Below, piece after piece: positions 11,050 to 60,796 of a DNA stretch of 64,000 nt. A program made the position numbers and the translations under genes. The DNA comes from Caulobacter zeae. Lineage in GTDB: Bacteria; Pseudomonadota; Alphaproteobacteria; Caulobacterales; Caulobacteraceae. Below the pieces are notes generated by a model. That model was not told the origin of the DNA, did no database searches, and saw only the letters and a program-made list of their open reading frames with translations. The stretch spans positions 62,001 to 126,000 of the forward strand of contig NZ_PJRS01000011.1 of assembly GCF_002858925.1 (NCBI RefSeq), read 5' to 3'. Position 1 is the first letter of the stretch. Each line of letters opens with the position of its first letter.

Positions 11050-11340
11050 ATTCCCTCTCTCTGAGAGAGAGGGAGGGGCCCACGCCAAGGGCGTGGGAGG
11101 GTGAGAGGTTACAGTCTCACCGGACAAGGCGCCGTCCCCCAAACCGCCCGCCATCCCGGAAAGCCCGAAGGGCTTATCCAGGACCCAGGGGCCGACGCAG
11201 TGCGGCGACCCCGGCTCTCCGGTACGCGGCGCCCGGATGACGATTGAGAGAACGGTCTGAGGTTTCCCGGCAAGCGGTGAAACCTCTCACCCTCCCACCG
11301 CTGCGCGGCGGGCCCCTCCCTCTCTCAAAGAGAGAGGGTC
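11050..11340. repeat. Intergenic palindromic repeat, family C, two facing halves
   Basis: Convergent gap between phoB and merR. The left half (11050-11110) has a self-pairing CCCTCTCTC hairpin, then GGGGCCCACGCC and GGCGTGGGAGGGTGAG. The right half (11280-11337) is its inverted relative, with CCTCTCACCCTCCCACCGC. About 170 bases between them have no gene. The same family occurs at 31320-31376 and 56985-57160. Confidence 0.7.
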
Positions 11341-11342
11341 GA

Positions 11343-11741
11343 TCATTTCCCCCGCAGTCGCCCGATGATCTCGCAGTCGGCCACCGTGTCGTTGCGGCAG
11401 TGGCCCAGCATGTCCTGAAGCTCGGCGCGCATGGCCGTCAGGTCGGCGATCTTGCGCTCGACCTCGGCCAGCTGGTCGCGGGCCAGGGCGTCGACCTCGC
11501 CGCAGGGGCGGTCGGCGCCGTCGGCGAGATCCAGCAGGGCCCGGATGGCGTCGAGGCCGAACCCCAGGTCGCGCGAGCGCTTGACGAAGGCCAGCCGGCG
11601 TTCGTGGCCGGCCTCGTAGGCGCGGTAGTTGCCTTCCGTGCGCGGCGGCTTGGGCAACAGGCCCATGCGCTCGTAGTAGCGGATGGTCTCGACCGGCACG
11701 CCGGTTCGGCGGGCGAGATCTCCGATGGATAGCGTCGACAT
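11343..11741 (-). CDS. MerR-family heavy-metal regulator (ZntR/CadR/PbrR type)
   Basis: A protein of 132 residues. The ATG at 11741 was chosen because it gives the standard MerR opening (IGDLARRTGVPVETIRYYERMGLLP); the open frame runs further upstream but lacks family sequence. The winged-helix DNA-binding part is residues 1-70. It is followed by the dimer helix and a metal-binding loop with Cys80, His114, Cys115 and Cys123, matching the thiol pattern of zinc, cadmium and lead sensors. It is divergent from the CDF exporter at 11802 and should twist that promoter into activity when metal binds. Which metal cannot be told from sequence. Confidence 0.9.
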   Translation of the reverse strand: MSTLSIGDLARRTGVPVETIRYYERMGLLPKPPRTEGNYRAYEAGHERRLAFVKRSRDLGFGLDAIRALLDLADGADRPCGEVDALARDQLAEVERKIADLTAMRAELQDMLGHCRNDTVADCEIIGRLRGK

Positions 11742-11745
11742 GCTC

Positions 11746-11777
11746 TTGACCCTGTAGCGACTACAGGGTGCAGAGAT
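11746..11777 (+). promoter_or_regulatory. MerR-type promoter and operator for the CDF gene
   Basis: A -35 element TTGACC (11746-11751) overlaps a perfect dyad ACCCTGTAG-CGA-CTACAGGGT (11749-11769). A plausible -10 (AGAGAT, 11772-11777) lies 20 bp downstream of the -35. The overlong spacer with a central dyad is the hallmark of MerR-activated promoters. Confidence 0.85.
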
Positions 11778-11801
11778 GGGGCCTTCTCGATGGAGGTCCA
11801 G

Positions 11802-12470
11802 ATGTCCGGCTGCTGCGGCGACGATCTTTGCAAACCCGAGAGCGCCCCGCCGGCGGGCCGCTGGCGCCTGGCGCTGTGGATCGCGCTGGTGGTCAACGGC
11901 GGCATGTTCCTCGTCGAGGGAACGGCGGGCCTGTTGTCGGGCTCGGCGGCGCTGCAGGCCGACAGCCTCGATTTTCTCGGTGATGCGGCCAACTACGCCA
12001 TCAGCCTGGGCGTGGCCGGCATGGCCCTGGCCTGGCGGGCCCGGGCGGCGATGCTGAAGGGCGCGACCATGCTGGTCTTCGGGGCCTGGGTCAGCGGCGC
12101 TGCGCTGTGGGGCGTGTTCGAGGGGCGCACCCCCGAGGCGCCGGTGATGGGCGCCCTGGGCCTGGCCGCCCTGGTCGCCAACGTCGCCGTGGCGATCATG
12201 CTCTATGGCTTCCGCACCGGCGACGCCAACATGCGCTCGGTGTGGATCTGCTCGCGCAACGACGCCATCGGCAACGTGGCGGTGATGCTGGCGGCGCTGG
12301 GCGTGTTCGGCACGAACTCGCGCTGGCCCGACCTGCTGGTGGCCGGGGTGATGGCGCTGCTGGCCTTGCAAGGCGGCTGGGAGATCGTCCGCCAGGCGCG
12401 CGGCGAACTGCGCCAGGCCAAGGCCCCGCCGGCCCCCGCTCGTTTCACCGTCGCGGCGCGCAACCGCTAG
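11802..12470 (+). CDS. Small cation diffusion facilitator, probable metal exporter
   Basis: A protein of 222 residues from the ATG at 11802 (GGAGGT four bases upstream); an ATG at 11790 would add four residues. It starts with a Cys-rich tail (MSGCCGDDLCKPE) that could bind metal, then about six membrane helices. The metal site motifs are the HxxxD-like pair seen as DSLDFLGDAANY in helix 2 and CSRNDAIGN in helix 5, with Asp replacing the usual His of zinc transporters. The cytoplasmic C-terminal domain is almost absent. It is transcribed from a MerR-type promoter next to the regulator gene, so it is probably a metal efflux protein induced by its own substrate. Confidence 0.85.
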   Translation: MSGCCGDDLCKPESAPPAGRWRLALWIALVVNGGMFLVEGTAGLLSGSAALQADSLDFLGDAANYAISLGVAGMALAWRARAAMLKGATMLVFGAWVSGAALWGVFEGRTPEAPVMGALGLAALVANVAVAIMLYGFRTGDANMRSVWICSRNDAIGNVAVMLAALGVFGTNSRWPDLLVAGVMALLALQGGWEIVRQARGELRQAKAPPAPARFTVAARNR

Positions 12471-12485
12471 CCGCCCGGTGCGTGG

Positions 12486-12575
12486 CCCTCGCCCTTCGAC
12501 AGGCTCAGGGTGAGGACCAATCTGGGCGCGGCGGCGGAAAAACCTCATCCTGAGCTTGTCGAAGGACGAGGTTTT
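12486..12575. repeat. Intergenic repeat, family E (facing CTTCGACAGGCTCAGG copies)
   Basis: A convergent gap holding CCCTTCGACAGGCTCAGGGTGAGG (from about 12491) and, inverted, CCTCATCCTGAGCTTGTCGAAGG (to about 12568). The two halves form an imperfect palindrome. This sequence type is common between genes of several alphaproteobacteria. Confidence 0.7.
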
Positions 12576-12590
12576 CGTCCCAGAGGCAGG

Positions 12591-13211
12591 CTAGCCGCCC
12601 AGCGCCGCCGTCACCGCCTCGGCCGTCAGGATGGCGTGGGCGTAGGTCGGGGCGTTGATGGCGTGGGCCGCGTGCAGGGCCTCGTCGGTAAAGGCTGCCG
12701 TGGCGTCGGTGACCAGGGTGACGTGGTAGCCCAGCTCCGAGGCGAAGCGGCCGGTGCCCTCGATGCAGGTGTTGGCCACCAGGCCGATCAGGATCACGTG
12801 GGTGATCTCGCGCTGCTTGAGGCGATAGTCGAGGTCGGTGTTGGCGAAGCCGCTGGAGCCCCAGTGTTCGGTGACGATGACGTCGCCGGGCAGGGGCGCG
12901 AAGTCGGGGTGCCACTGGCCGCCCCAGCCGTCCTTCTCGAAGACCATCGCCCGGGCGCTGCCTTGCAGGTAGGGCGAGGGATGCTTCCAGCCGTCCAGGT
13001 CGCCCAGGGCGAAGCGGTGGTGAGGCACGATGAACACCGGCAGGCCGGCCGCCCGCGCCGCCGCCGTCACGGCCGCCAGCCGCGCGTGCAGCCCTTCGGC
13101 CGCTTTCGTCGCCGCGACCCTGGGCCACAGCTTGCCGCCGTCGGCCAGGAAGTCGTTGTAGGGGTCGACGAACAACAGGGCGGTGCGGTCCCTGGGATAG
13201 GCGTCCGGCAT
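12591..13211 (-). CDS. Isochorismatase-family cysteine hydrolase
   Basis: A protein of 206 residues; the ATG at 13211 has AGGAG correctly spaced upstream. The fold is clear from the opening TALLFVDPYNDF with Asp16 and the nucleophile Cys149 in LVANTCIEGTGRFA. Family members cleave C-N or vinyl-ether bonds (nicotinamidase, ureidoacrylate hydrolase, isochorismatase). The usual catalytic Lys position appears to be Glu115 (VIVTEHWGSSGF), which sets it apart from nicotinamidases; another nearby residue may compensate. Substrate unknown. It lies downstream of a repeat that separates it from the hybrid kinase, so it probably has its own promoter. Confidence 0.85.
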   Translation of the reverse strand: MPDAYPRDRTALLFVDPYNDFLADGGKLWPRVAATKAAEGLHARLAAVTAAARAAGLPVFIVPHHRFALGDLDGWKHPSPYLQGSARAMVFEKDGWGGQWHPDFAPLPGDVIVTEHWGSSGFANTDLDYRLKQREITHVILIGLVANTCIEGTGRFASELGYHVTLVTDATAAFTDEALHAAHAINAPTYAHAILTAEAVTAALGG

Positions 13212-13310
13212 GGCGAGGCTCCTGGCGGCGGGACTGTCAGGAGGCGCGCTCGGCGGGCGGAAGGCTTGGATGTTCCGGTCGTGGCGGGACCTCCCTCCAC
13301 CTCCAAAACT

Positions 13311-13441
13311 CCCGTCATTCTCGCCCTTGTGGCGAGAACCCCTGGTTCCGCCTGCACGGGAGGCGCAAGCGGATCGCAGGCGATCCGCCTCAACCGCCCT
13401 TGCGGCTGGCAGAGGGGTTTCCGCCACAAGGGCGGGAATGA
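13311..13441. repeat. Intergenic palindromic repeat, family A, copy 1
   Basis: The outer arms are CCCGTCATTCTCGCCC and the inverted GGGCGGGAATGAGGGG. The centre is a separate hairpin, CGGATCGC-AG-GCGATCCG region (13370-13388). Other copies are at 29350, 40552 and 60678. It lies between the hybrid kinase stop and the cysteine hydrolase start (tandem, minus). Confidence 0.85.
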
Positions 13442-13456
13442 GGGGAGATTAAGGAC

Positions 13457-15076
13457 CTAAACCCCCTCCGCCGCCAGTTCGCAGGCTTGCGCGATGGCGT
13501 CGAACAGGGCCGAGACGGTGACCGGCTTGGCCAGGTGCAGGTCGGCGCCGGCCGCCAGGCAGGCCTCCACCTGGTGGGGCATGGCGTTGGCTGTCAGCGA
13601 GATGATCGGGATCCGCACGCGGCCGGCGGCCCGCTCGCGCTGGCGGATCTCCTGGATCGCCGTCAGCCCGTCCATCACCGGCATCTGGGTGTCCATCAGG
13701 ACGAGGTCGAAGTCCTGCGCCTGGTAGGCGCGCAGGGCCGCCTCGCCATCCTCGGTGACGACCACGTCGGCGACGCCGTCGAGCATCAGTTCCACCACCC
13801 GCTGGTTGGCCGGATGGTCCTCGGCCAGCAGCACCCGCAGGCGCTCGGGCGCGGCGGCCTTCGGCGCGCGCCGGGCCGGCGCCGGCGCTTCCGGGGCGGC
13901 CGGGGCCAGGCGCGTGGTCAGGGTGAAGCGAGCGCCTTCGCCGGGCGTGGAGACGCAGGCGATGTCGCCGCCCATCAGCTTGGCGAACCGCAGGGCGATC
14001 GACAGGCCCAGGCCCGAGCCGCCGAACCGGCGGGTGATCGAGCCGTCGCCCTGCACGAAGCGCTCGAACAGGCTGGCCTGCACCTCGGGCGTGAAGCCCT
14101 CGCCGGTGTCCTCGACGGTGAGGGTCAGCAGCACCTCGTCGCCGTCGGCGCGCGTGCCTGCGTGGACGCTCACCGAGCCCTCGCAGGTGAACTTCACCGC
14201 GTTGCTGATCAGGTTGTTGACGATCTGTCCGAACTTCAGTGCGTCGCCGGTGACCCGCTGCTGGAAGGGCTCGTCGAAATCGAGCGAGAAGGACAGGCCC
14301 TTCTGGTGGGCCAGGCCCTCGAAGGTGGCGGCGCAGGCGGTCACCGCCGCGCGCAGGTCGAAGGGCGCGGTTTCCAGCTCGACCTCGCCGGCCTCGATCT
14401 TGGCCAGATCCAGAATGCCGCTGAGCAGGGCGTTCAGGGTGCGGCCGGAGCTGAGGATCACGTCCATCATCTCGCGCTGGCGCGGGGTCAGCTCGGTCTG
14501 GGCCAGCACCTGGGCCATGCCCAGCACGCCGTTCAGGGGCGTGCGGATCTCGTGGCTCATATTGGCCAGGAACTCTGACTTGGCGACGCTGGCGGCGCGG
14601 GCCCTCTCCAGGGCGGCCTCCAGGGCGATTGCCGACTTCTTTCGCTCGGTGATGTCCTCGCTGATGATCAGCAGCAGCTTCTCGTCGCCCTCTCCGGGGA
14701 TGGCGATCTTCTTGGTCTGCAGCCAGCGGTCGCCGTTGTGCGGCGTCTTCAGCGGTTCCTCGTCGATCACCCACAGGCGGTCGCTGGCCAGCACCTTGGC
14801 GTCCATCTCGGCGAAGAAGGCGGCCTGCTCGGGCGGGAAGAAGTCGGCGTCGTTGCGGCCGATCAGGTCCTCGCGCGGGACGCCCAGCAGTTCCTCGCCG
14901 GTGCGGTTGACCAGCACGAAGCGGCCGTCGCGGCCGTTCTTGACCACCAGCATGGCCGGCACGCTCTCGACCACGGCGTCGAGGAAGGCCCAGGAGTGCA
15001 GGGCCTTGGCCGGGTGGGAAGCGGCGTCCGTCGCGGCCGCCGGGTCGCGCGGAAGGTGATGGTCGTCCTTGGCCAT
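13457..15076 (-). CDS. Hybrid sensor histidine kinase (PAS, kinase, receiver)
   Basis: A protein of 539 residues without membrane segments, so a cytoplasmic sensor. A PAS domain with PAC-like tail (about residues 28-148) is followed by a coiled linker and the kinase domain. His175 lies in NMSHEIRTPLNG, then the N box (NNLISNAVKF), G1 (VEDTGEGF) and G2 (GSGLGLSIA). An Ala/Pro linker leads to a C-terminal receiver with Asp462 (LVLMDTQMP), the Thr in SLTANAM and Lys in HLAKPV. It should pass phosphate internally from His to Asp, then to an unlinked Hpt protein. No partner gene is adjacent. It is divergent from purD. The signal is unknown. Confidence 0.93.
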   Translation of the reverse strand: MAKDDHHLPRDPAAATDAASHPAKALHSWAFLDAVVESVPAMLVVKNGRDGRFVLVNRTGEELLGVPREDLIGRNDADFFPPEQAAFFAEMDAKVLASDRLWVIDEEPLKTPHNGDRWLQTKKIAIPGEGDEKLLLIISEDITERKKSAIALEAALERARAASVAKSEFLANMSHEIRTPLNGVLGMAQVLAQTELTPRQREMMDVILSSGRTLNALLSGILDLAKIEAGEVELETAPFDLRAAVTACAATFEGLAHQKGLSFSLDFDEPFQQRVTGDALKFGQIVNNLISNAVKFTCEGSVSVHAGTRADGDEVLLTLTVEDTGEGFTPEVQASLFERFVQGDGSITRRFGGSGLGLSIALRFAKLMGGDIACVSTPGEGARFTLTTRLAPAAPEAPAPARRAPKAAAPERLRVLLAEDHPANQRVVELMLDGVADVVVTEDGEAALRAYQAQDFDLVLMDTQMPVMDGLTAIQEIRQRERAAGRVRIPIISLTANAMPHQVEACLAAGADLHLAKPVTVSALFDAIAQACELAAEGV

Positions 15077-16537: not shown

Positions 16538-16554
16538 GAACCGATCCCTGGAAG

Positions 16555-16683
16555 AACCCTTCCCCCTTGATGGGGGAAGGGCAGGGTTGGGGGTGAGCTG
16601 CTGAGCTGGCCGCCTGCGCCAGCCGCCGACGCCGTAACCACCCCCATCCCCGACCCTTCCCCCATCAAGGGGGAAGGGGGTTT
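16555..16683. repeat. Intergenic palindromic repeat, family F
   Basis: Facing copies of CCCTTCCCCCTTGATGGGGGAAGGG (from 16558) and CCCTTCCCCCATCAAGGGGGAAGGGGG (ending about 16682), each self-pairing. It fills the tandem gap between purD and the phosphotransferase gene. A half copy occurs at 19362-19382. Confidence 0.75.
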
Positions 16684-17824: not shown

Positions 17825-17827
17825 GGA

Positions 17828-17950
17828 ACCTCCCCCTGTGGGGAAGGCGATCGCGAAGCGATCGGTGGGGGAGATCGGCCGCCTCCGCGGAAGCTGAAAA
17901 CGGCCCCCCTCCGTCGGCTTTGCCGACACCTCCCCCAGAGGGGGAGGATC
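17828..17950. repeat. Intergenic palindromic repeat, family B, copy 1
   Basis: Outer arms are CCTCCCCCTGTGGGGAAGG and ACCTCCCCCAGAGGGGGAGG. The inner stems are CGATCGC-GAA-GCGATCG and GTCGGC-TT-TGCCGAC. Tandem plus-strand gap. Other copies (near 39340, 42063, 45660 and 47899) change the inner stems but keep pairing. Confidence 0.8.
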
Positions 17951-18043
17951 TACGAAATATGGCGTGACAGCCTCGGCCTGACCCCGCCATCCTGCCGCAA
18001 ACGCCCCTGGGGAGGGGCGAGATCGTTCAGAGGGGCTCTCTTC

Positions 18044-19354: not shown

Positions 19355-19361
19355 GCCCTTC

Positions 19362-19382
19362 CCCCATCAAGAGGGAAGGGAG
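19362..19382. repeat. Half copy of family F repeat, terminator-like hairpin
   Basis: CCCTTCCC and GGGAAGGG pair across a nine-base loop in the 38-bp convergent gap between the amidohydrolase and lpxK. There is no T run. Confidence 0.55.
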
Positions 19383-19392
19383 ATGCCCAGGA

Positions 19393-22731: not shown

Positions 22732-22870
22732 TCCCTCTCCCCCTTGTGGGAGAGGGTGGCCTCCCGGAGGGAGGTCGGGTGAGGGGTCTCTCAGAAGTCG
22801 GCGGAGAGGTCGTTGACCCCTCATCCGACGGCCTTCGGCCGCCACCTTCTCCCGCAAGGGGAGAAGGGGT
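22732..22870. repeat. Intergenic palindromic repeat, family G, copy 1
   Basis: Outer arms are CCCTCTCCCCCTTGTGGGAGAGGG and CCTTCTCCCGCAAGGGGAGAAGG. The centre stem is CGGCC-TTC-GGCCG. Tandem minus gap between DUF374 and the CDF gene. The related copy at 26252-26402 has a different but still pairing centre. Confidence 0.8.
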
Positions 22871-22878
22871 CTCGATAC

Positions 22879-23579
22879 TCAGTCCTCGATCCCCACGATC
22901 TCTTCCGCCCGCCGGGTCACGGCCGAGAGGCGGTCGGCCCAGTCCTCGGCCAGGGTGTCGGGGTCGTCGCCGCGGCCGGCGCCCGTGGGGCCGTCCCAGA
23001 CCATGGCGGCCTTGGCGAAGGGCAGGGGGATCAGCGTGCGGTCCCAAGAGCCCAGGCGGATGCAGGGTTTGGCGGCCAGGCCGACGAAGATCACCGGCGC
23101 GCCGGTGACGCGGGCCAGGGACGGGGTGCCCTTCTCCATGTGCTCGGCCGGGCCGCGCGGGCCGTCGGGGGTGATGGCGATGCCGCCGCCGTCCTTCACC
23201 CACTTGACCATGTCGCGGAAGGCCTGCTCGCCGTGCTTGTTCTTGGCCAGGTCCGTCTTCTTGGCCGACGAGCCGCGGATCGACGGGAAGCCGAGCTTTT
23301 CCACCGTGCGGGCGATGAACTCGCCGTCGTTGGACAGCGAGATCAGGGCGCGCATGTCCTGGCGGGCCGGGCTCTGCGGCCAGGACAGCGGCGACATCGG
23401 GATGCGCGAGTGCCAGAAGCACAGGATCGCGCCCGCGCCCTTGGTGCGCCCCTGCGCCCAGACGGCCTCGGCCTGGTCCTGGCCCTCGACGGTCATGCGC
23501 AGCGTCATGAAGACCAGCTTGGAATAGCCGGCGAAGATCGAGGACAGGATCTTGATGACCAGGGGGGAACGCAGAGGCC

Positions 23580-25394: not shown

Positions 25395-25581
25395 GGGCGA
25401 GGGGTCGGATTTCGAGGGAGGGCTGTCAAGGACGCCGGCGCCGCACTTTTGGAATTAAAGCGTGCGGACGCCGAAACCGCTGACACTTTCGGCCGCCACG
25501 CTTTGCGACGCCAAACGACGCGGGGGTTTTGCAATAATCCCCGGTGGGCCCTATCTAGGCGCGTTTTCAGAGGATCGCCAC

Positions 25582-26251: not shown

Positions 26252-26402
26252 GTCCCTCTCCCCTTGCGGGAGAGGGTGGCCTCCCGGAGGGAGGTCGGGT
26301 GAGGGGTCTCTCAGAACTCCGGGAGAAGAGCTCTGCGGACAGACCTTTCGACCCCTCATCCGTCATCCTGCGGATGACACCTTCTCCCGCAAGGGGAGAA
26401 GG
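26252..26402. repeat. Intergenic palindromic repeat, family G, copy 2
   Basis: Same outer arms as 22732-22870, but the centre stem is GTCATCC-TGC-GGATGAC instead of CGGCC-TTC-GGCCG. It lies in the convergent gap between the phosphatase and DUF4170 genes. Confidence 0.8.
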
Positions 26403-26410
26403 ATCCGCTC

Positions 26411-29226: not shown

Positions 29227-29349
29227 CGACGGACCCTTCGTACAGAAAGCGGGGCCGCATAAGGCCCTGGCTTCCGCGCTCATGGCAACTGGTGACGTGA
29301 CGGAAGCTTGGCTTTGAATGGGCGTCTGCCTACGACCTTGCCCCATACT

Positions 29350-29483
29350 CCCGTCATTCCCGCCCTTGTGGCGGGAACCCCTCTCTCAGCCGCGAGGGCA
29401 GATGGGGCGGATCGCCAGCGATCCGCTGGCGTTTTACGCACGGGCGGAACCAGAGGTTCCCGCCACAAGGGCGGGAATGACGG
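29350..29483. repeat. Intergenic palindromic repeat, family A, copy 2
   Basis: Arms CCCGTCATTCCCGCCCTTGT and the inverted form GGGCGGGAATGACGG. Centre hairpin at 29408-29425 (CGGATCGC-CA-GCGATCCG). Tandem minus gap between SDR and MAPEG genes. Confidence 0.85.
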
Positions 29484-29508
29484 ATGTTGAGGGGCGTGGC
29501 CCAAATCC

Positions 29509-30225
29509 TCAGCGCAGGCTGTAGCCGCCGTCCGTGAACAGCGTCGTCCCCGTGGTGAAGCCGTTGGTCAGGAGGAACAGCACCGCCTGGGCGATCTCGG
29601 CCTCGGTTCCGGGGCGGCCGGCCAGCGAGCCGGCGGCCTGGCCGGCGAAGGCGGCGTCGCGAACCTCGGCGGGGCGCCGGGCCCAGAAGTCGCCGTCGAT
29701 CGTGCCCGGCGCGATCACGTTGACTCGGATGGGCGCCAGGTCGACCGCCAGACCGCGCCCGAACGCCTCAATCGCGCCGTTGGCGGCCGCGTAGAGGGCC
29801 GCGCCCTTGGGCGGCCGGGCGCTGGCGGCGCCAGACATCAGCACCACCGAGCCGTCGGGCGAAAGCTTCGGCGCGGCGGCGCGCACGCAGCGGACCTGGC
29901 CCCAGAACTTGCCGTCGAAAGGCGAGGCCAGGGCCGCCTCGTCGGGATGATCGAAGGGCGCGATGGTGTAGGTGGCGGCCGGGGTGAACAGGTGGTCGAT
30001 GCGGTCGACCAGCGCGAAGAAGCGGGCCACCGAGGCGGGGTCGAACAGGTCGACCGCCGCCGCCCGGGCGTTGGGACCCAGGCGTTCGCGCGCGGTCTCG
30101 AGCCGATCGAGCGACCGCCCGCCGATCACCACCTGTCCGCCGCCCTCGACGAAGGCCTTCGCCGTGGCCAGCCCGATCCCCGAGCCGCCGCCGATCACCA
30201 CCAGGGTCTTGTCATCATATCGCAT
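29509..30225 (-). CDS. SDR-family oxidoreductase lacking the catalytic Lys
   Basis: A protein of 238 residues; ATG at 30225. The Rossmann motif is VIGGGSGIGLA. The active site has a Ser in LMSGAAS and Tyr145, but the usual YxxxK reads YAAAN, with Asn149 replacing Lys. The C-terminus FTTGTTLFTDGGYSL is typical of the family. Such YxxxN members exist, and they may still reduce substrates or be impaired. Divergent from a LysR regulator 75 bp away, which probably controls it. Substrate unknown. Confidence 0.88.
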   Translation of the reverse strand: MRYDDKTLVVIGGGSGIGLATAKAFVEGGGQVVIGGRSLDRLETARERLGPNARAAAVDLFDPASVARFFALVDRIDHLFTPAATYTIAPFDHPDEAALASPFDGKFWGQVRCVRAAAPKLSPDGSVVLMSGAASARPPKGAALYAAANGAIEAFGRGLAVDLAPIRVNVIAPGTIDGDFWARRPAEVRDAAFAGQAAGSLAGRPGTEAEIAQAVLFLLTNGFTTGTTLFTDGGYSLR

Positions 30226-31227: not shown

Positions 31228-31319
31228 GAGGTAACAAACTCGCGGAATGAAGCGCGGCGTTCGTGCAGCGGCGCGTCGCGGTTGGCCGCCTTCTCGGATT
31301 CGCCTGCTGGCGGTGAAAA

Positions 31320-31376
31320 CCCTCACCCTCCCACCGCTTCGCGGCGGGCCCCTCCCTCTCCCTATGGAAGAGGGGG
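31320..31376. repeat. Intergenic palindromic repeat, family C, half copy
   Basis: CCCTCACCCTCCCACCGC followed by GCGGCGGGCCCCTCCCTCTCC, matching the right half of 11280-11337. Convergent gap between LysR and the M14 peptidase genes. Confidence 0.7.
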
Positions 31377-37266: not shown

Positions 37267-37276
37267 TGGCGGCGCC

Positions 37277-39146: not shown

Positions 39147-39300
39147 GCCTTGCCCCTCCCCCGCTCGCGGGGGAGGGGGACCGCGAAGCGGTGGAGGGGG
39201 CGGGACTGGGCGCCGTGCCGGCCGTCGCCCCCTCCGTCACGGCGCTTATAGCGCCGCGCCACCTCCCCCGTTTTACGGGGGAGGTGCAGGGAGGCGGCCC
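39147..39300. repeat. Intergenic palindromic repeat, family D
   Basis: Facing arms GCCCCTCCCCCGCTCGCGGGGGAGGGG and ACCTCCCCCGTTTTACGGGGGAGGTG (ending about 39287), each self-pairing. Inner stems include ACCGC-GAA-GCGGT and GGCGC-TTATA-GCGCC. Tandem minus gap between VOC and ABC exporter genes. Confidence 0.75.
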
Positions 39301-39339
39301 GAAGCGACTGACTACGGCCAACTCTACGAAAGCTGAGAC

Positions 39340-39435
39340 CGTCCCCCCCGGCCCTCCGGGCCACCTCCCCCAGAGGGGGAGGATTTATCGCCGTGAATGC
39401 TCCCCCTCAGGGGGAGCTGCCGCGGAGCGACTGAG
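39340..39435. repeat. Intergenic palindromic repeat, family B, partial copies
   Basis: The right-hand part of family B (CCCCCCCGGCCCTCCGGGCC then ACCTCCCCCAGAGGGGGAGG) followed by CTCCCCCTCAGGGGGAGCTG and GCCGCGGAGCGACTGAGGGG. Directly adjacent to the family D element. Confidence 0.75.
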
Positions 39436-39438
39436 GGG

Positions 39439-39792
39439 TCACTCGAACCCGGTGGCGCTCCAGACGGCCAGTTCGTTGCCGGCCGGGTCGATGAAGTGGA
39501 AGCGGCGACCGCCGGGGAATTCGAAGATCGGCTTCACCACCACGCCGCCGGCGGCGACCACCTTGGCCTCCATGGCTTCGAGGTCGTTGGCGTAGAGGAT
39601 GACCAGCGGCTTGGCCGGCTCTTCGGTGATGTCGCCCACGAAGCCGCCGTCGGCGCCCTGGCCCTCGAAGGCGGTGTAGCCGGGGCCGTAGTCGGTGAAG
39701 CTCCAGCCGAAGGCGGCGGCGTAGAAGGCCTTGGTCGCCGGCAGCTCGCCGCCCGCCCATTCGATGTAGTCGATCTTGCCGTCTTCGCGCAT
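39439..39792 (-). CDS. VOC-superfamily protein (glyoxalase/bleomycin-resistance fold)
   Basis: A protein of 117 residues with a single VOC module: IDYIEWAGGELPATKAFYAAAFGWSF at the start and GRRFHFIDPAGNELAVWS at the end, a typical paired beta-alpha-beta motif. ATG at 39792 has GAGGAG upstream. VOC proteins bind a metal and act as lyases, dioxygenases or binding proteins; the substrate here is unknown. Confidence 0.88.
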   Translation of the reverse strand: MREDGKIDYIEWAGGELPATKAFYAAAFGWSFTDYGPGYTAFEGQGADGGFVGDITEEPAKPLVILYANDLEAMEAKVVAAGGVVVKPIFEFPGGRRFHFIDPAGNELAVWSATGFE

Positions 39793-40495: not shown

Positions 40496-40551
40496 GGGGC
40501 GGGTTAGAGCATTGGTGCGGCGGCCAGACCAGTAGGGCGCCAACCTATCCG

Positions 40552-40685
40552 CCCGTCATTCCCGCCCTTGTGGCGGGAACCCCTGGTTCCGCTCGCACGC
40601 GAGGCGCCAGCGGATCGCCTGCGATCCGCCACATCTGCCCTTGCGGCTTATGGAGGGGTTCCCGCCACAAGGGCGGGAATGACGG
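40552..40685. repeat. Intergenic palindromic repeat, family A, copy 3
   Basis: Arms CCCGTCATTCCCGCCCTTGT and the inverted GGGCGGGAATGACGGG; centre hairpin CGGATCGC-CT-GCGATCCG (40611-40628). Tandem minus gap between the methyltransferase and desaturase genes. Confidence 0.85.
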
Positions 40686-40697
40686 GAAAATATAGGG

Positions 40698-41657
40698 TCA
40701 GGCCGCCTTCCCGGACGCCGCCTTCAGCACCGTCAGATAGCCCGGCGCGGTCAGCATGCCCTCGGTCAGCCCCTTTTCCCGCAGCAGCCGGTGGGCGCGG
40801 GGCAGGTTCCAGCAGGGCACGTGCATGAACAGGTGGTGCTCGGCGTGGAAATTGACGTGGTAGGGCGCGACCAGGGCGCGTTCGAGCCAGTTGGCGCGGG
40901 TGGTGCGGGCGTGGCGGAACGGGTCGGGCTCGTCCTTGGCCACCAGGGCGTGCTCGGCGATGTTGCGCAGGCGGGTGACGAGCGGGAACCAGGTGGCCAT
41001 CGGCACGATCCAGAGCGCCAGCCAGGCCCACCACAGGCCCGCGGCGCTCAACACCACGAGCATGGCCAGGTTGATCAGCAGGAACCGCTTCTGGCCCGCC
41101 GCCGCGCGGGCGAAGATCGCGCCGGGGGCCTGGCCGTGGCCGCGCTGCTTCAGGCCGGCGATGATTGGTCCCAGCCGCTGCTTGAAGAAGGTCTGGCCCG
41201 TGAGGTCGCGGACGATCTTGCGGCGCAGCGAGGCGCGGGTGGTCGGGAACGGCGCCGACAGCACGAGGTCGGGGTCTTCCGCCTGCTGGGCGAACTTGTG
41301 GTGGGTCAGGTGGTAGGGGCGGTAGCTGCTGAGCGAAGCGCCCAGGGGCGCGGCGCACAGCCACTCGCCCAGCCAGTCGTTGAGCTTGAGGTTGGGGTGC
41401 AGGCCGCCATGCGCGGTCTCGTGCATCAGGATCGCCAGGCCCAGCTGCCGCGCGCCGATCAGCATGACCGCCACGAGATAGGTCAGCGGGTTGGGCCAGA
41501 TCACGAAGAGGGCGCCGGCCGCCAGGATCACGCCCCAGGCGTGGGCGACCATGGCGATCCCGCGCCAGGACGAGCGCGCCGACAGGCGAGCCCATTCCTC
41601 GGGCGCGAACAGCTCCTGCGGCTTGATGCGGGCGGCGACGGCCATGGAACGGATCAT
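40698..41657 (-). CDS. Membrane fatty acid desaturase
   Basis: A protein of 319 residues with four or so membrane helices and the three His boxes of diiron desaturases: HETAHGG (near residue 79), HLTHH (near 117) and HAEHH (near 273). It introduces double bonds into fatty acyl chains using oxygen. Start at 41657 or the nearby ATG at 41645. The acyl substrate and position are unknown. Divergent from the small LprI-like gene. Confidence 0.9.
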   Translation of the reverse strand: MIRSMAVAARIKPQELFAPEEWARLSARSSWRGIAMVAHAWGVILAAGALFVIWPNPLTYLVAVMLIGARQLGLAILMHETAHGGLHPNLKLNDWLGEWLCAAPLGASLSSYRPYHLTHHKFAQQAEDPDLVLSAPFPTTRASLRRKIVRDLTGQTFFKQRLGPIIAGLKQRGHGQAPGAIFARAAAGQKRFLLINLAMLVVLSAAGLWWAWLALWIVPMATWFPLVTRLRNIAEHALVAKDEPDPFRHARTTRANWLERALVAPYHVNFHAEHHLFMHVPCWNLPRAHRLLREKGLTEGMLTAPGYLTVLKAASGKAA

Positions 41658-42061: not shown

Positions 42062-42062
42062 G

Positions 42063-42262
42063 AGCCTCCCCCTGTGGGGGAGGCGATCGCGCAGCGATCG
42101 GTGGGGGGAGTGGCTGCGAAGTCGGCCGACGCCTCGAAAGCTGAGAAGCCCCCCTCCGGCCCTCCGGGCCACCTCCCCCAGAGGGGGAGGATTTCTTGGC
42201 GCCGGCGCTCCTTGAAGATGCTCCCCCTCTGGGGGAGCTGTCGGCAAAGCCGACTGAGGGGC
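42063..42262. repeat. Intergenic palindromic repeat, family B, copy 2 plus tail
   Basis: A full family B unit (CCTCCCCCTGTGGGGGAGG, stem CGATCGC-GCA-GCGATCG, stem GGCCC-TCC-GGGCC) followed by CTCCCCCTCTGGGGGAGCTG and GTCGGC-AAA-GCCGAC. Convergent gap between the LprI-like gene and ubiA. Confidence 0.85.
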
Positions 42263-42268
42263 CTTCCC

Positions 42269-45649: not shown

Positions 45650-45659
45650 CGCCTGCGCA

Positions 45660-45775
45660 GGCCCCCTCAGTCGCTCCGCGACAGCTCCCCCAGAGGGGGA
45701 GCATCTTCTTGGCTCGGCGTCGTTAGATCCTCCCCCCTTTGGGGGAGGTGGCCCGGAGGGCCGGAGGGGGTCAGA
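45660..45775. repeat. Intergenic palindromic repeat, family B, copy 4
   Basis: CCCCCTCAGTCGC-TCC-GCGAC with AGCTCCCCCAGAGGGGGAGC, then CCTCCCCCCTTTGGGGGAGG and GGCCC-GGA-GGGCC. Convergent gap between the 85-residue gene and the NAD-binding protein. Confidence 0.8.
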
Positions 45776-47895: not shown

Positions 47896-47898
47896 GGA

Positions 47899-48030
47899 CC
47901 CTCCCCCCCATGGGGGAGGAGACCGCGTAGCGGTCGGAGGGGGGCGTAGTCGGGAAATCGGCCGTCGTTTCGGGAGCTGAAACCGTCCCCCCTCCGGCTC
48001 TCCGGGCCGCCTCCCCCAGAGGGAGAGGAT
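47899..48030. repeat. Intergenic palindromic repeat, family B, copy 5
   Basis: CCTCCCCCCCATGGGGGAGG arms with stem GACCGC-GTA-GCGGTC (instead of CGATCGC/GCGATCG) and stem GGCTC-TCC-GGGCC, then CCTCCCCCAGAGGGAGAGG. Convergent gap before the sucB terminator. Confidence 0.8.
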
Positions 48031-48043
48031 CTTCTGACCAAAG

Positions 48044-48068
48044 AAAAAGGGGCCGCTTTCGCGGCCCC
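48044..48068 (-). terminator. Rho-independent terminator of sucB
   Basis: GGGGCCGC (48049-48056) pairs with GCGGCCCC (48061-48068), loop TTTC, with five T following on the minus strand. It is 27 bases beyond the sucB stop. Confidence 0.88.
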
Positions 48069-48094
48069 TTCGTCGTTCTGGATCGAACCGGACC

Positions 48095-56973: not shown

Positions 56974-56984
56974 ACCCAAAACCT

Positions 56985-57160
56985 CTCCCATGGGGAGAGG
57001 GAGGGGCCCGCGCCGATAGGCGTGGGAGGGTGAGGGGGTAAACCGCCTGCGGTCCCATCATCCCTCGGTCACAGCCCTGTCCGGATAGGCTCAAACCCCT
57101 CAACCTCCCATGCTGCGCATGGGCCCCTCCCTCTCCCTCTGGGAGAGGTTTTTCAGGGAT
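56985..57160. repeat. Intergenic palindromic repeat, family C, copy 3
   Basis: Left half CTCTCCCATGGGGAGAGGGAGG with GCGCC-GATA-GGCGT; right half CCTCAACCTCCCATGC and GCATGGGCCCCTCCCTCTCC. Convergent gap between the chemoreceptor and glycan enzyme genes. Stem sequences differ from 11050-11340 but still pair. Confidence 0.8.
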
Positions 57161-57176: not shown

Positions 57177-60100
57177 TCACTTCACCGCCACGGTCGCGCG
57201 GCGTTCCAGTTTGCCCCAGCCCACCCGGCCGCCGCGCACGGCGGTCAGCACCGATTTCACCACCACGTAGTACATCAGCTGGCGGTAGCCGAAGCGCTGC
57301 ACCGGCAGGTAGGGCAGGTCGGCCCACGGCGCGCGCTTCTCCAGGGCCATGCCCAGGGCGCCGGCCGACAGGTCGACGAGAATGAACACCGCCCAGTAGA
57401 GCAGGCCGCGCACCATGTCGTCGGGCCGCCATTCCAGCGGGTGGGCGAGCGCGGCGTAGAGGCCCGACACCAGGCTCCAGACCACGGCCAGGTCCACGAG
57501 CGGCGCCGCCACGGCCAGGAGGATCTGGAACAGCCAGATCTGCGGCAGGGCCACGAAGCCCAGCACCGGGGTCTTGGGGTTGAACAGCGCCGCGCGATGC
57601 TTCCACACGCATTGCAGGGTGCCGAACGACCAGCGGAAGCGCTGCTTGAGCAGGCCCGACACCGTGTCGGGGGCCTCGGTATAGGCGCGGGCGGCCGGGT
57701 CGAAGGCCACCTTCCAGCCGGCGCGCTGGCAGGCGATGGTCAGGTCCTGGTCCTCGGCCAGGGTGTCGGAGGGATAGCCGCCCAGGGCGTCGAGCACGCT
57801 CTTGCGCCAGGCCCCGACCGCGCCCGGCACGACGGTCACCGCGCCCAGGGCCGCCAGAGCCCGCCGCTCCAGGTTCTGGGCGGTGACATATTCCAGGGCC
57901 TGCCAGCGGGTGACGATGTTGAGGCGGTTGCCGACGATGGCGTTGCCGGCCACAGCCCCGATCTTCGGGTCGGCGAACCAGCGCACCAGACGGCCGATGG
58001 TCGACTTGGGGAACTGGGTGTCGGCGTCCAGGGCCACGACATACTCGCCCCTGGCCACGGCCAGGCCCCGGTTGACGGCCCGCGCCTTGCCGCCGTTCTC
58101 GAACGACAGCAGCGTCACGCGCGGATCGCCGGCGAAGTGGTCGCGCACCTCCTGGGCCGTGCGGTCCTTGGAGCCGTCGTCGAGGACCAGCACCTCGATA
58201 TTGGTCCAGTCGCTCTCCAGGATCCGCGCCACCGATGCGGCGATCACCTTTTCCTCGTTGAAGCAGGGGATCAGCACGCTGACCAGCGGGCCGCTCGCGG
58301 GATCCAGATCCTGCGGCGTGCGCTCGGTCGCCTTGTGGACCAAGGCCAGGCAGGCCAGGAAGACGAGGCGCGCCACGCCCAGGGCGATGGCGGTGATGAA
58401 GAGCCCGACCAGCAGGGCGTTCAGCCCCCGGAAGAAGCCGAAACCCAGGCGGTCCAGCGCCAGGCCGACGGGATCGCGCTCGCTCTTGGGCATCACCTGC
58501 TCAGGCGTCATGCCGGCCAGCTCGCCGACCGTGACCAGCCGGTAGCCGCGGGCGCGGATGCCGTCGATCAGGCCGGGCAGGGCCTTGATGGTGTTCTCGC
58601 GATTGCCGCCGGCGTCGTGCAGCAGCACCACCTGCCCGGGGTTGGCGCCCGGATGGTCCAGGCGGTCCAGCGCGCGGTCGATGATCACCTGCGGGGGCGG
58701 CTTCTGCCAGTCGTCGGTGTCGATCCGCAGGCCGACGATCAGGTAGCCCAGGGTCTGGGCGATCACCAGGGGATCGACCTCGCGCGGGGTCGAGGGCTCG
58801 GCGTCGCCGAAGAACGGCGGGCGGAACAGCCGCATCGAGCGGCCGGTGACCACCTCGAACAGGCGCTGGGTGGCGTTCAGCTCGACCTGGGTCTGGGGCA
58901 GCGGCGTCTCGCCGATGTTGGGGTGGGTCCAGGTGTGGCCGCCGACGTCGTGGCCTTCGCGGATCTCGCGCTCCACTAGGCCCGGATGCTTCTGCATGTT
59001 CTGGCCGATGACGAAGAAGGTGGCCGGCGCGTTCTTGGCTTTCAGGATGTCGAGGATCTTCGGCGTCCAGCGCGGGTCGGGGCCGTCGTCGAAGGTCAGG
59101 GCCACCAGGCCCGGCTTCTGGCCGTAGCGCTCGATGACATAGGAGCTGGGCAGCACGTCGTAGGTCTCGCCCGAGATCAGGCCGGTGTCGGGGTCGAACT
59201 CCAGGGACCGCTTGCCCGGCGTGGGCAGGGACGAGACACGCAGCACCTCGCCGCCGCCGTCGAAGTCGACGCTCTGGCCCGCCGGGATGCGGGCCAGGGC
59301 GGCGGCCGTCGCCTTGCCGTAGGGCTGGCCCAGCACGCTCCACACGCCCGGATCCTCGCCGCCCATCCGCCACAGGCCATAGCCGCGCGGGCGGAACGGG
59401 TCGGTGGCCTTGATCTGGTTGAACAGGGTGGCCGCGTCGAGGAACCACACGACGTGCTTGTCGCCGTTGTCGGCGGCGTAGGCGTAGGTGGGGTTGAGGG
59501 CGTCGTCGTCCATGCGGATGGCCGCGCCGGCGTCCTGGGCGTTGCGGATCGCCTCGTGGAAGGTGGCCGCGTCGCCGCTGGCCGCCGTCCCGTCGGCCTT
59601 CAGCGTCCAGTCGTAGCCGTAGGCGCCGAGCGCCAGCACGGTGCGGGCCGGGTCGAGGGTGGCGAAGCGCTTGTCGAGCTCGGCTTCGTACCAATCCTGG
59701 CCGGCGTTGGGGCCGGGATCGCCGCCGCCGTAGTGCTGGTCGTAGGCCATCAGCACGATGGTGTCGGCCGACTGCTGCAGGCGCTTGAGCGGCCAGCCCT
59801 GTTCGTCGAAGGGCGCGGTGACCCAGACCTCGCGGCCCGAGGCCTTGAAGGCCGCGCGGGCTTCGTCCAGCAGCAGCGGATAGTTGGCCAGGCCCTTGGG
59901 CGACAGGGCCTCGAGGTCGAAGATGTAGCCGCCGAAGCCGCGCCGCTGGGCCAGGGCGACCAGGTTGTCGATCAGCGCCTTGCGGGCGGCCGGGTCGGCC
60001 AGCAGGGCGTCGGCCATCGGGCCGTTGAAGCTGGCGTTAGCCGAGTTGTGTACCAGCGGCAGCACGGTCGGGTGGTTGGGCGCGGCGGCGATGCGGGCCG

Positions 60101-60533
60101 TGCCGACCGGGTCGTCGTCGACCGAGATCTGGCCCTTGGGGCCGTTCAGCGCCACCCACTGCGGCGAGACGACATCGAGGCCGGCGATGTGCCGGCGCAG
60201 GGACTCGCGGCTGTCCTCGTCCCAGGGCACGTAGAAGCCGACGCTGAGCGGCTTGGCCGCGCCGGTCGTGGTCGGGGTCTTGGGCGCGGGGAGGGCTCGC
60301 CAGGCGGGCGGCTTGCCGGGCTTGAGGCGGTGGACCGTCTCCTCGTGCAGCGCCGACAGCACGTGCGGGTCCTTCAGCGTCACCGCCGGCAGGCGCGGGG
60401 CGAAGGCCAGGGTGGCCAGGAAGCCGGCGACGATGGCCGCCACCAGCGACAGGGCTATGCCCGCCGCCAGGGTGAACCTGCGCCGCCGCTTGCCGGTGGG
60501 ATCATGGAAGATGTGCCGATCGTCGCCGCTCAT
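57177..60533 (-). CDS. Three-domain glycan enzyme: GH18-like, polysaccharide deacetylase, GT2
   Basis: A protein of 1118 residues. After a basic cytoplasmic tail and one membrane helix (about 20-42), residues about 95-400 form a GH18-like domain with GGYIFDLE (Asp206, Glu208), as in chitinase-like folds. Residues about 470-680 are a NodB/CE4 deacetylase with TFDDGPDP (Asp482 and Asp483), HTWTHP, RPPFF and LLHDAGG. Two helices then lead to a GT2 domain: DDGSKDRT (Asp785), DADTQ (Asp836), EDQDLTIA and QRFRW (Gln964), with more C-terminal helices. The GT2 site should face the cytoplasm and the other two the periplasm. This suggests synthesis, deacetylation and trimming of an N-acetylated polymer, poly-GlcNAc-like or chitin-like. 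The substrate is inferred. Confidence 0.9.
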   Translation of the reverse strand: MSGDDRHIFHDPTGKRRRRFTLAAGIALSLVAAIVAGFLATLAFAPRLPAVTLKDPHVLSALHEETVHRLKPGKPPAWRALPAPKTPTTTGAAKPLSVGFYVPWDEDSRESLRRHIAGLDVVSPQWVALNGPKGQISVDDDPVGTARIAAAPNHPTVLPLVHNSANASFNGPMADALLADPAARKALIDNLVALAQRRGFGGYIFDLEALSPKGLANYPLLLDEARAAFKASGREVWVTAPFDEQGWPLKRLQQSADTIVLMAYDQHYGGGDPGPNAGQDWYEAELDKRFATLDPARTVLALGAYGYDWTLKADGTAASGDAATFHEAIRNAQDAGAAIRMDDDALNPTYAYAADNGDKHVVWFLDAATLFNQIKATDPFRPRGYGLWRMGGEDPGVWSVLGQPYGKATAAALARIPAGQSVDFDGGGEVLRVSSLPTPGKRSLEFDPDTGLISGETYDVLPSSYVIERYGQKPGLVALTFDDGPDPRWTPKILDILKAKNAPATFFVIGQNMQKHPGLVEREIREGHDVGGHTWTHPNIGETPLPQTQVELNATQRLFEVVTGRSMRLFRPPFFGDAEPSTPREVDPLVIAQTLGYLIVGLRIDTDDWQKPPPQVIIDRALDRLDHPGANPGQVVLLHDAGGNRENTIKALPGLIDGIRARGYRLVTVGELAGMTPEQVMPKSERDPVGLALDRLGFGFFRGLNALLVGLFITAIALGVARLVFLACLALVHKATERTPQDLDPASGPLVSVLIPCFNEEKVIAASVARILESDWTNIEVLVLDDGSKDRTAQEVRDHFAGDPRVTLLSFENGGKARAVNRGLAVARGEYVVALDADTQFPKSTIGRLVRWFADPKIGAVAGNAIVGNRLNIVTRWQALEYVTAQNLERRALAALGAVTVVPGAVGAWRKSVLDALGGYPSDTLAEDQDLTIACQRAGWKVAFDPAARAYTEAPDTVSGLLKQRFRWSFGTLQCVWKHRAALFNPKTPVLGFVALPQIWLFQILLAVAAPLVDLAVVWSLVSGLYAALAHPLEWRPDDMVRGLLYWAVFILVDLSAGALGMALEKRAPWADLPYLPVQRFGYRQLMYYVVVKSVLTAVRGGRVGWGKLERRATVAVK

Positions 60534-60677
60534 CGCGCCGTGCCCCGTTCATACCGCTGATAACACGGTTTCGGCGGCGCAATGATCCTCGATCATGTCC
60601 GAACGGTGGCGCTTGAACGGCCTTGAAGCGACTGCGACTTTTTGGCCGGGGATCGCCTTCCGTTCCCCCACTCCACT

Positions 60678-60796
60678 CCCGTCATTCCCGCCCTTGGTTC
60701 CGCTCCCACGAGAGGCGCAAGCGGACTGCTCAGCAGTCCGCCGCTCTCGCCCTTGCGGCTGACAGAGGGGTTCCCGCCACAAGGGCGGGAATGACG
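60678..60796. repeat. Intergenic palindromic repeat, family A, copy 4 (shortened)
   Basis: The right arm matches other copies, but the left arm lacks about 15 bases (CCCGCCCTTG joins directly to GTTCCGC). The centre is CGGACTGCT-C-AGCAGTCCG (60722-60740), different from the other three copies but equally palindromic. Tandem minus gap between MFS and glycan enzyme genes. Confidence 0.85.

What the first reader, a model, noticed from the sequence alone, without database searches (positions are those of the whole stretch)
11050..60796. Intergenic palindromes are excluded from promoter gaps and fill convergent gaps
Repeats of families A-G lie in nine of ten convergent gaps (11050, 12486, 19362, 26252, 31320, 42063, 45660, 47899, 56985; the exception is a 10-bp gap at 37267) and in seven tandem gaps. 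None of the ten divergent gaps has one (4176, 11742, 15077, 25395, 30226, 35266, 41658, 43196, 46632, 54750). That is a strong positional rule. It suggests action at transcript 3' ends (mRNA stabilisation, termination, blocking of antisense read-through) or strong selection against insertion near promoters.
Basis: seen in the sequence. Interest (0 to 1): 0.72.

Follow-up and report, generated by a model that had tools for sequence, protein, structure and literature searches.

The report
Interchangeable hairpin repeats at gene ends
Short DNA repeats that fold into hairpins sit directly behind the stop codons of many genes in a Caulobacter-like bacterium and hardly ever between promoters; that rule is known for such repeats, but here the same gene end often carries an unrelated repeat family in a close relative, as if one hairpin can stand in for another.

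Summary
In the window 9 of 10 convergent and 8 tandem gaps carry these repeats, 0 of 10 divergent gaps do. In 1.2 Mb of the same genome outside the window, repeats lie in 67 of 123 convergent, 2 of 175 divergent and 43 of 446 tandem gaps; gap length does not explain it. The real rule is position behind a stop codon (median 4 nt in tandem gaps). Promoter avoidance alone fails: 0 of 9,712 bp of divergent gaps at least 100 nt from any start is repeat, against 4,779 of 25,259 bp in tandem gaps. The rule is published for REPs. Not found in print: against relative G005, 16 of 52 gaps filled in both genomes hold a different family, more than chance (tandem p=5e-7, convergent p=0.013); a second pair did not confirm this after reading by eye. 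Best reading: fast-turning REP-like elements that persist as interchangeable 3'-end RNA hairpins; a neutral 'least-bad site' is a close rival. Most families lack U-tracts, all nearly lack the CcrM site, and the genome lacks a RAYT-type gene.

The parts
11053..11338 (.). F1 dimer with an F7 (CGTC-tagged) element between its halves, convergent gap 11048-11342; both families also here in 3 of 3 relatives compared
   Evidence: repeat runs 11053-11121, 11145-11242, 11267-11338; relatives
12475..12582 (.). F2 inverted dimer (CCTTCGACAAGCTCAGGATGAGG type), convergent gap; F2 also in G010; in G005 and G022 the two genes overlap at CTAG with no element; G020 has another unclassified palindrome
13297..13453 (.). 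F3 (CGTCATTCCCGCC type) element behind the stop of the gene at 13457, tandem gap; empty in G005; in G010 an F1 dimer lies inside what looks like an F3 remnant
16557..16678 (.). F4 dimer (CCCTTCCCCC-GGGGGAAGGG), tandem gap; F4 in G010, F6 in G020, F8 in G005 and G022
   Evidence: inverted repeat I3
17825..17962 (.). F5 dimer flush with the stop codon, tandem gap; F5 in G010 and G022, other palindromes in G005 and G020
19355..19392 (.). single F4-like hairpin filling a 38-nt convergent gap; four relatives have full F5 or F6 dimers here
22732..22869 (.). F6 dimer behind the stop of the gene at 22879, tandem gap; F6 in G020, F5 in G010 and G005
26253..26403 (.). F6 dimer, convergent gap; F6 in G020, F5 in G005, G010, G022
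29341..29501 (.). F3 element behind the stop of the gene at 29509, tandem gap; empty in G005 and G022
31301..31374 (.). one half of an F1 element, convergent gap; reduced hairpins in G010 and G020
39157..39438 (.). F5c plus F5 units behind the stop of the gene at 39439, tandem gap
   Evidence: runs 39157-39223 and 39248-39438
40538..40692 (.). F3 element behind the stop of the gene at 40698, tandem gap; F3 in G010, F5c in G005 and G020
42062..42265 (.). three F5 units filling the convergent gap from stop to stop; F5 in G010, F6 in G020, F8 in G005
45650..45770 (.). F5 dimer filling the convergent gap; F5 in G010 and G005, F6 in G020
47896..48044 (.). F5 dimer, convergent gap; F5 in 3 of 3 relatives compared
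48044..48071 (-). ordinary intrinsic-terminator hairpin with T-tract for the minus-strand gene, kept in three relatives beside the F5 dimer
   Evidence: sequence
56982..57148 (.). F1 dimer, convergent gap; F1 in G005, F5 in G010, F4 in G020
60667..60813 (.). F3 element behind the stop of the gene at 60820, tandem gap; F3 in G010 and G005, F7 in G020
25464..25502 (.). exception: palindromic repeat of a promoter-type family in a divergent gap that is 57 nt longer here than in four relatives

Best explanation
These are several unrelated families of REP-like palindromic elements, mostly inverted dimers, that turn over fast and persist almost only directly behind stop codons at ends of transcription units. 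Shown: the position, the stem-loop architecture with compensatory changes, the turnover, the replacement of one family by another at the same gene end between this genome and close relatives, and an inverse relation to ordinary terminators. Inferred: they are transcribed as 3' untranslated hairpins, and any stable hairpin there does the job of ending the message, most likely by stopping 3'-to-5' exonucleases after Rho-dependent or run-on termination and, between convergent genes, by limiting antisense overlap. An element is therefore tolerated or favoured at that address whatever its family, and can be swapped for another.
For: Position: tandem copies start a median 4 nt behind the upstream stop and end 68 nt before the next start (n=35); hold-out 12 of 13 within 8 nt. 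Divergent gaps have none even far from starts (0 of 9,712 bp). Repeat-free convergent 3' ends have equally stable hairpins (median 60-nt MFE -28.1, shuffled -20.3; repeat-bearing -27.7, shuffled -21.6) while the 5' sides of divergent gaps have no excess (-17.0, shuffled -16.9). Inverse relation: an ordinary terminator lies in 25 of 44 repeat-free convergent gaps but outside the repeat in 11 of 50 repeat-bearing ones, p=7e-4; tandem 4 of 38 against 50 of 177 gaps of 80 nt or more, p=0.02. Same address, other family: own against G005 (93-94% median gene identity), a different family in 8 of 32 convergent and 8 of 20 tandem gaps filled in both; leaving out same-family gaps, co-occupancy exceeds chance (odds 5.9, p=0.013; odds 24, p=5e-7). 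All 16 cases were read by eye; correcting three mislabelled one-sided gaps, or also counting F5/F6 exchanges as the same, leaves p at 0.008 or less. Inner stem of F5: 236 of 250 cells pair, 148 expected after re-dealing. In 35 orthologous copies 48 pairs changed on both sides and 36 of them still pair.
Against: No RNA data. A second pair, G007-G002, at first seemed to repeat the co-occupancy (tandem p=7e-4), but reading its cases showed one to be the same family and one not to be co-occupied; corrected p is 0.23, or 0.04 if one doubtful case counts, and its convergent gaps give p=0.58. In a closer comparison (own against G010 over C13) all 14 gaps filled in both have the same family. Tandem co-occupancy with G005 weakens when only gaps with 80 nt or more of non-repeat sequence are used (odds 5.3, p=0.11). 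The wobble test for selection at RNA level is not significant (tandem 23 G.U against 12 A.C, p=0.09; convergent 11:10). In orthologous copies 138 of 186 pairs changed on one side no longer pair, and stem positions change at 8.7%, slower than unpaired element positions (17.6%) and four-fold sites (13.6%) but no slower than gap sequence outside the element (8.6%) or divergent gaps (6.7%). The lack of terminators beside repeats may simply reflect lack of room (median 17.5 nt of non-repeat sequence). In E. coli REPs closer than 16 nt to the stop lower translation (PMC12306157, passages), so flush hairpins could be costly or act on translation instead.
Confidence: 0.45

Rival explanations
1. Neutral, least-bad location: selfish palindromes insert widely and are removed by selection wherever they harm promoters, operons or coding sequence; the patch behind the last stop of a transcription unit is the only free space, so turnover and coincidence at the same addresses follow without any function.
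For: Published for Pseudomonas fluorescens as tail-repeat-tail bias and 'least worst' location (PMC2718517, passages). Fast gain and loss; worn single-hairpin remnants exist; no copies inside 357 kb of coding sequence; wobble test not significant; the second-pair co-occupancy test failed.
Against: Divergent gaps lack copies even far from starts (0 of 9,712 bp at 100 nt or more); copies are flush to the stop rather than spread over the free space; ordinary terminators are fewer where repeats are present; co-occupancy by different families above chance against G005.
Confidence: 0.37
2. Targeted insertion: a mobilising enzyme inserts the elements preferentially at 3' ends, for instance at existing terminator hairpins or in DNA exposed where transcription ends, giving the positional rule without selection.
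For: Flush position and repeated filling of the same address. At 12471 the element lies between two CTAG where two relatives have one CTAG shared by both genes; a direct repeat of about 5 nt is seen at C6:73043.
Against: No PF01797 (Y1/RAYT) gene found in this genome, and 1 of 20 F5-rich against 15 of 41 F5-poor genomes of the genus have one; stop codons at filled ends show no strong bias (TGA/TAG/TAA 43/33/19 flush, 214/113/61 repeat-free; not tested formally); one enzyme for nine unlike families is unlikely; no general target duplication was seen in the pairs printed. Other transposase families were not searched.
Confidence: 0.13
3. Intrinsic transcription terminators carried by mobile elements.
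For: 22 of 50 convergent repeat gaps contain a loosely terminator-like site inside the repeat; F2 edges are often followed by T.
Against: Per hairpin only 3-9% in F1, F2, F3, F5, F6 and F7 have 4 or more T in the next 7 nt, against 19% in repeat-free convergent gaps.
Confidence: 0.05

Closest known systems
REP/BIME and tagged REP families (GTAG and CGTC; Di Nocera et al. 2013, PMC3733652, abstract and passages)
   Same: Short palindromes, often paired in opposite orientation, intergenic, between convergent or tandem genes and mostly within 20 bp of the 3' end of the upstream ORF; F3 and F7 begin with the CGTC tag; CGTC REPs are said to lack a dedicated transposase.
   Different: I see no GTAG or CGTC tag on F1, F2, F4, F5, F6 and F8; family replacement at the same address was not in the passages read; the word Caulobacter has 0 occurrences in that text.
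Pseudomonas fluorescens intergenic repeat families (PMC2718517, passages)
   Same: Several families in one genome with a tail-repeat-tail bias.
   Different: There explained as least-bad location; address-level comparison between strains was not in the passages seen.
E. coli REPs close to stop codons (PMC12306157, passages)
   Same: Part of them lies 1-20 nt behind an ORF; [quoted passage not shown]
   Different: Different sequences; E. coli has a PF01797 match (control row), this genome none.
Caulobacter CcrM-associated intergenic repeats (CIR; Chen and Shapiro 2003, seen only through passages of PMC2229807 and PMC10969869)
   Same: Intergenic repeats of about 110 bp with two inverted-repeat arms in Caulobacter.
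   Different: CIRs carry the CcrM site GANTC at a loop; these repeats nearly lack it (3 in about 16.6 kb).
General stem-loop enrichment in convergent gaps and behind stop codons (PMC1590033; PMC6060812; passages)
   Same: Stable stem-loops prefer convergent gaps and the 50 bp behind stops in the bacteria surveyed.
   Different: The passages seen are about stem-loops at large, not about exchange of repeat families.

Membership tests
REP in the broad sense (high-copy intergenic palindromes) | many copies, palindromic, intergenic | tested here: met
   F5 hairpin 123 places genome-wide against 7 for the reversed pattern; F2 core 125 forward against 0; 0 repeat runs inside 357 kb of coding sequence
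REP in the broad sense (high-copy intergenic palindromes) | 3'-end location, convergent and tandem gaps | tested here: met
GTAG REP with RAYT | RAYT (Y1 transposase) gene in the genome | tested here: not met
   PF01797 not found in the own genome; the same search rings in 5 of 14 control genomes
GTAG REP with RAYT | GTAG/GGAG tag at one end of the palindrome | tested here: inconclusive
   no such tag seen by eye next to F1-F8 hairpins; not scanned systematically
CGTC REP | CGTC tag followed by a stem starting with AT | tested here: met
   for F3 (CGTCATTCCCGCC) and F7 (CGTCATCCCGG) only, read in the sequences; not seen in the other families; stem and loop lengths not compared with the published families
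CIR (CcrM-associated) | GANTC site conserved in a loop | tested here: not met
   3 GANTC in about 16.6 kb of repeats, 234 in 105,158 bp of the other gap sequence; base composition not corrected for
Intrinsic terminator | hairpin followed by a U-tract | tested here: not met
   3-9% of hairpins in six families; F2 outer edges 39% of 44 and 22% of 37
MITE | terminal inverted repeats with target-site duplication | tested here: inconclusive
   among filled/empty pairs read by eye a direct repeat stood out at 12471 (CTAG) and at C6:73043 only
3'-end mRNA stabiliser | raises half-life or defines the 3' end of mRNA | not testable with these tools
   needs RNA data

The most novel reading that the evidence does not exclude
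Gene 3' ends in this genus are standing 'sockets' for a hairpin: the address stays occupied between species while unrelated mobile palindrome families replace one another in it, so that the host depends on having some hairpin there and the elements compete for a shared, functionally equivalent niche. Ordinary terminators would be one more occupant of the same socket, some of them worn-down elements.
Probability: 0.25. Interest if true: 0.72.

Novelty: new variant of a known kind. Interest (0 to 1): 0.48.

Why it matters
The convergent-gap rule is known for REPs, but whether it reflects function or mere tolerance has stayed open. Gene ends at which close relatives carry unrelated elements, a single hairpin or none are natural swap experiments: the same mRNA with different 3' hairpins. 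They make the question testable by Term-seq and half-life measurements across sequenced relatives without any engineering. If occupants are interchangeable, selfish palindromes would be a standing supply of 3'-end hairpins, and terminator evolution would be linked to mobile elements.

Tried and rejected
RAYT-driven spread: rejected for F5 (1 of 20 F5-rich and 15 of 41 F5-poor genomes of the genus, p=0.012; phylogeny not corrected). CIR membership: rejected. Intrinsic terminators as a class: rejected. Insertion into stop-codon motifs: no strong stop-codon bias. Import of whole alleles by recombination: flanking genes of changed addresses are as similar as those of unchanged or repeat-free ones (medians 91.5, 92.2, 91.9% identity; p=0.80 and 0.96). 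RNA-level wobble asymmetry: not significant. Unit orientation in tandem gaps: 16 sense, 16 antisense. Rfam: 0 matches at gathering scores in the window; no tRNA. The protein chosen for the genome-contig scan is widely shared outside Caulobacter; it gave one locus at 96% identity (Caulobacter endophyticus strain 774), the next at 80% or less, and its loci were not used further. An F2-core scan found matches in 15 of 142 genomes of the class, the own one included: scattered, not explained.

Limits: gene starts come from my own caller, so gap lengths at 5' sides are approximate (26% of 89 divergent orthologous gaps differ by 30 nt or more although the median difference is 1 nt). The repeat rule differed between steps (support 3 and for the hold-out; support 4 and so (density), 52, 65, 68, 72 and the non-hold-out part of 73; support 2). 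At support 4 two F5c gaps of the own genome (C6:7240, C6:104669) were missed and count as empty; one tandem case (C13:284387) is one-sided only through a misplaced gene start; corrected tests are. Family labels come from seeds that I wrote; labels outside the close relatives are weak (8 of 17 and 11 of 23 repeats of G007 and G002 unlabelled). F5 and F6 share an architecture and may be distant kin (3 of the 16 exchanges). The contigs sampled were chosen for length, not at random.
Full report
WHAT WAS CHECKED. The window lies in a 5.39-Mb genome in 49 contigs; the nearest named hit of one window protein is Caulobacter endophyticus strain 774 at 96% identity, so I speak of a Caulobacter-like genome. 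All 552 gaps of 20-700 nt in the window plus 800 kb of the same genome were compared all against all; a repeat is a run of 20 nt or more matched by at least 3 other gaps. Real gaps: 52 of 94 convergent, 2 of 131 divergent, 35 of 327 tandem; dinucleotide-shuffled gaps: 0, 0, 0. Without the window: 43 of 85, 1 of 121, 27 of 307. A 397-kb hold-out, scored against the first library: 25 of 38, 1 of 54, 13 of 139, with no run inside coding sequence. Pooled without the window: 67 of 123, 2 of 175, 43 of 446; at 100-150 nt gap length 30 of 38, 0 of 35, 5 of 81. Stretches of four relatives (G005, G010, G020, G022) add up to 71 of 118 convergent, 2 of 168 divergent and 74 of 440 tandem gaps (my sum of the seven rows; orthologous gaps of different relatives are counted separately). 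More distant G007 and G002: 7 of 17, 1 of 27, 8 of 65 and 9 of 17, 1 of 27, 11 of 78.

WHERE EXACTLY. In tandem gaps the repeat begins 0-105 nt (median 4) behind the upstream stop and ends 4-395 nt (median 68) before the next start, n=35; in the hold-out 12 of 13 begin within 8 nt. In convergent gaps with repeats the non-repeat remainder has a median of 17.5 nt, against a median length of 79 nt for repeat-free gaps. In tandem gaps repeat coverage rises with distance from the next start to 24% at 175-200 nt, whereas divergent gaps stay at 0 of 9,712 bp beyond 100 nt from both starts. So being behind a stop codon is the rule, and distance from promoters alone does not produce it.

WHAT THE ELEMENTS ARE. 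I distinguish F1 to F8 and F5c, mostly inverted dimers. F5, the commonest, is a stem CTCCCCC-GGGGGAG, a second stem of variable sequence and a G-rich tail that could pair with the head of the other unit. In 50 distinct F5 units the five outer pairs of the variable stem form Watson-Crick pairs in 236 of 250 cells; after re-dealing the 3' letters the mean is 148 and the maximum 167. The F5 hairpin occurs at 123 places in the genome against 7 for the reversed pattern and at 0 to 226 over 61 genomes of the genus. The F2 core is found 125 times here and in 14 of the 141 other genomes of the class that were searched. No PF01797 (Y1/RAYT) gene was found here; in the genus 16 of 61 genomes have one, but only 1 of 20 with 50 or more F5 hairpins.

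SAME ADDRESS, DIFFERENT OCCUPANT. Own against G005 over three regions (93-94% median gene identity), conserved gene neighbours: convergent 24 same family, 8 different family, 6 own only, 7 relative only, 31 none; tandem 12, 8, 10, 9, 273; divergent 0, 0, 2, 0, 87. Leaving out same-family gaps, occupancy in one genome predicts occupancy by another family in the other (convergent odds 5.9, p=0.013; tandem odds 24, p=5e-7); restricting tandem gaps to 30, 50 or 80 nt of non-repeat sequence gives odds 9.2, 7.9, 5.3 with p=0.002, 0.009, 0.11. All 16 exchanges were read by eye. With three mislabelled one-sided gaps moved, p is 0.0035 and 3e-7; with F5/F6 exchanges also counted as the same family, 0.008 and 2e-5. 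The pair G007-G002 (90.5% identity) first gave 4 different-family tandem gaps and p=7e-4, but on reading one was the same family, one not co-occupied and one doubtful, leaving p=0.23, or 0.04 with the doubtful one; its convergent gaps give p=0.58. Own against G010 over C13 (95.6% identity): 14 gaps filled in both, all of the same family; over the window own against G010, G020 and G022 gives 4 of 14, 6 of 12 and 2 of 3 different, one of these (13212, G010) being F1 inside an F3 remnant. In the window the gap at 42062 has F5 here and in G010, F6 in G020 and F8 in G005; the gap at 56974 F1 here and in G005, F5 in G010, F4 in G020; the gap at 16538 F4 here and in G010, F6 in G020, F8 in G005 and G022, each time followed by the same downstream leader. 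Of 22 unfilled partners of one-sided convergent pairs over all comparisons 17 are 46 nt or shorter, among them genes overlapping at CTAG, gaps of 6, 8 or 11 nt and single worn hairpins (the own 38-nt gap at 19355 counts four times). Divergent gaps mostly keep their length (median difference 1 nt; 26% differ by 30 nt or more, partly through start calls; convergent 17.5 nt and 45%).

HOW IT MAY WORK. Three results speak for a 3'-end role: repeat-free 3' ends carry equally strong hairpins, ordinary terminators are rarer outside the repeat in repeat-bearing gaps (11 of 50 against 25 of 44), and double changes in stems of orthologous copies mostly keep the pair (36 of 48). Most hairpins lack a U-tract, so stopping 3'-to-5' exonucleases, as reported for E. 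coli REPs (PMC12306157, passages), fits better than intrinsic termination. Against it: 138 of 186 one-sided changes break their pair and stems change no more slowly than the gap sequence outside the element (8.7% against 8.6%), though more slowly than unpaired element positions (17.6%) and four-fold sites (13.6%); the wobble test is not significant; there are no RNA data. The neutral account stays close behind.

KNOWN AND NEW. The positional rule is in print for REPs (PMC3733652), for P. fluorescens repeats (PMC2718517) and for stem-loops at large (PMC1590033; PMC6060812); I read passages, not whole papers. Replacement of one family by another at the same gene end did not come up in the listings of searches nor in the passages of PMC3686654 and PMC3116915; the nearest is PMC3686654, in which orthologous RAYT genes are flanked by different REP classes. 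Passages of PMC8144410 and PMC12320835 gave nothing that I use, and PMC2267715 had none of my terms. Most subscription papers are not held, and Chen and Shapiro 2003 was not opened. I therefore file the finding as a new variant of a known kind.

Noticed in passing
window 25464-25502; own genome C6:212302, C6:225336, C6:173844, C6:344253, C13:144553, C13:162871: A palindromic family with the opposite rule (core GAAACCGC..CACTTTCG between GAGCGCGTC/GACGCGCTC arms): 7 gaps above the shuffled maximum, 4 divergent, 3 tandem, 0 convergent; the window gap that holds it is 57 nt longer than in four relatives. Possibly a regulator site or a promoter-linked element.
   Followed up: partly
G005 counterpart of window gap 45650-45770 (in L179-L182): The F5 element there is interrupted by another element with TGTTGCGAAATTCGG...TTATGCAACGATCC ends; a similar sequence lies in a divergent gap of G005.
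   Followed up: no
G010 counterpart of window gap 13212-13456 (in L183-L186): An F1 dimer lies between pieces that look like an F3 element: a possible intermediate of family replacement by nesting.
   Followed up: no
own C6 against G007 and G002: Convergent neighbours seem less often conserved than other neighbours at 85% identity (1 convergent, 8 divergent, 26 tandem conserved against G007; 2, 7 and 31 against G002), as if rearrangements break preferentially at convergent junctions. Not tested.
   Followed up: no
window 12471-12590: Element flanked by CTAG on both sides, where G005 and G022 have one CTAG shared by the two convergent stop codons: a 4-bp direct repeat that could be a target duplication or the trace of precise loss.
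   Followed up: partly
G005 counterparts of own C6:62200 and C6:75107: F7 elements nested in an outer repeat that begins with CTCAATTGAGCG and ends with GCGCAATTGAGTACGGA.
   Followed up: no
61 genomes of the genus: F5 hairpin numbers range from 0 to 226 per genome, so the family has expanded or vanished within the genus.
   Followed up: partly
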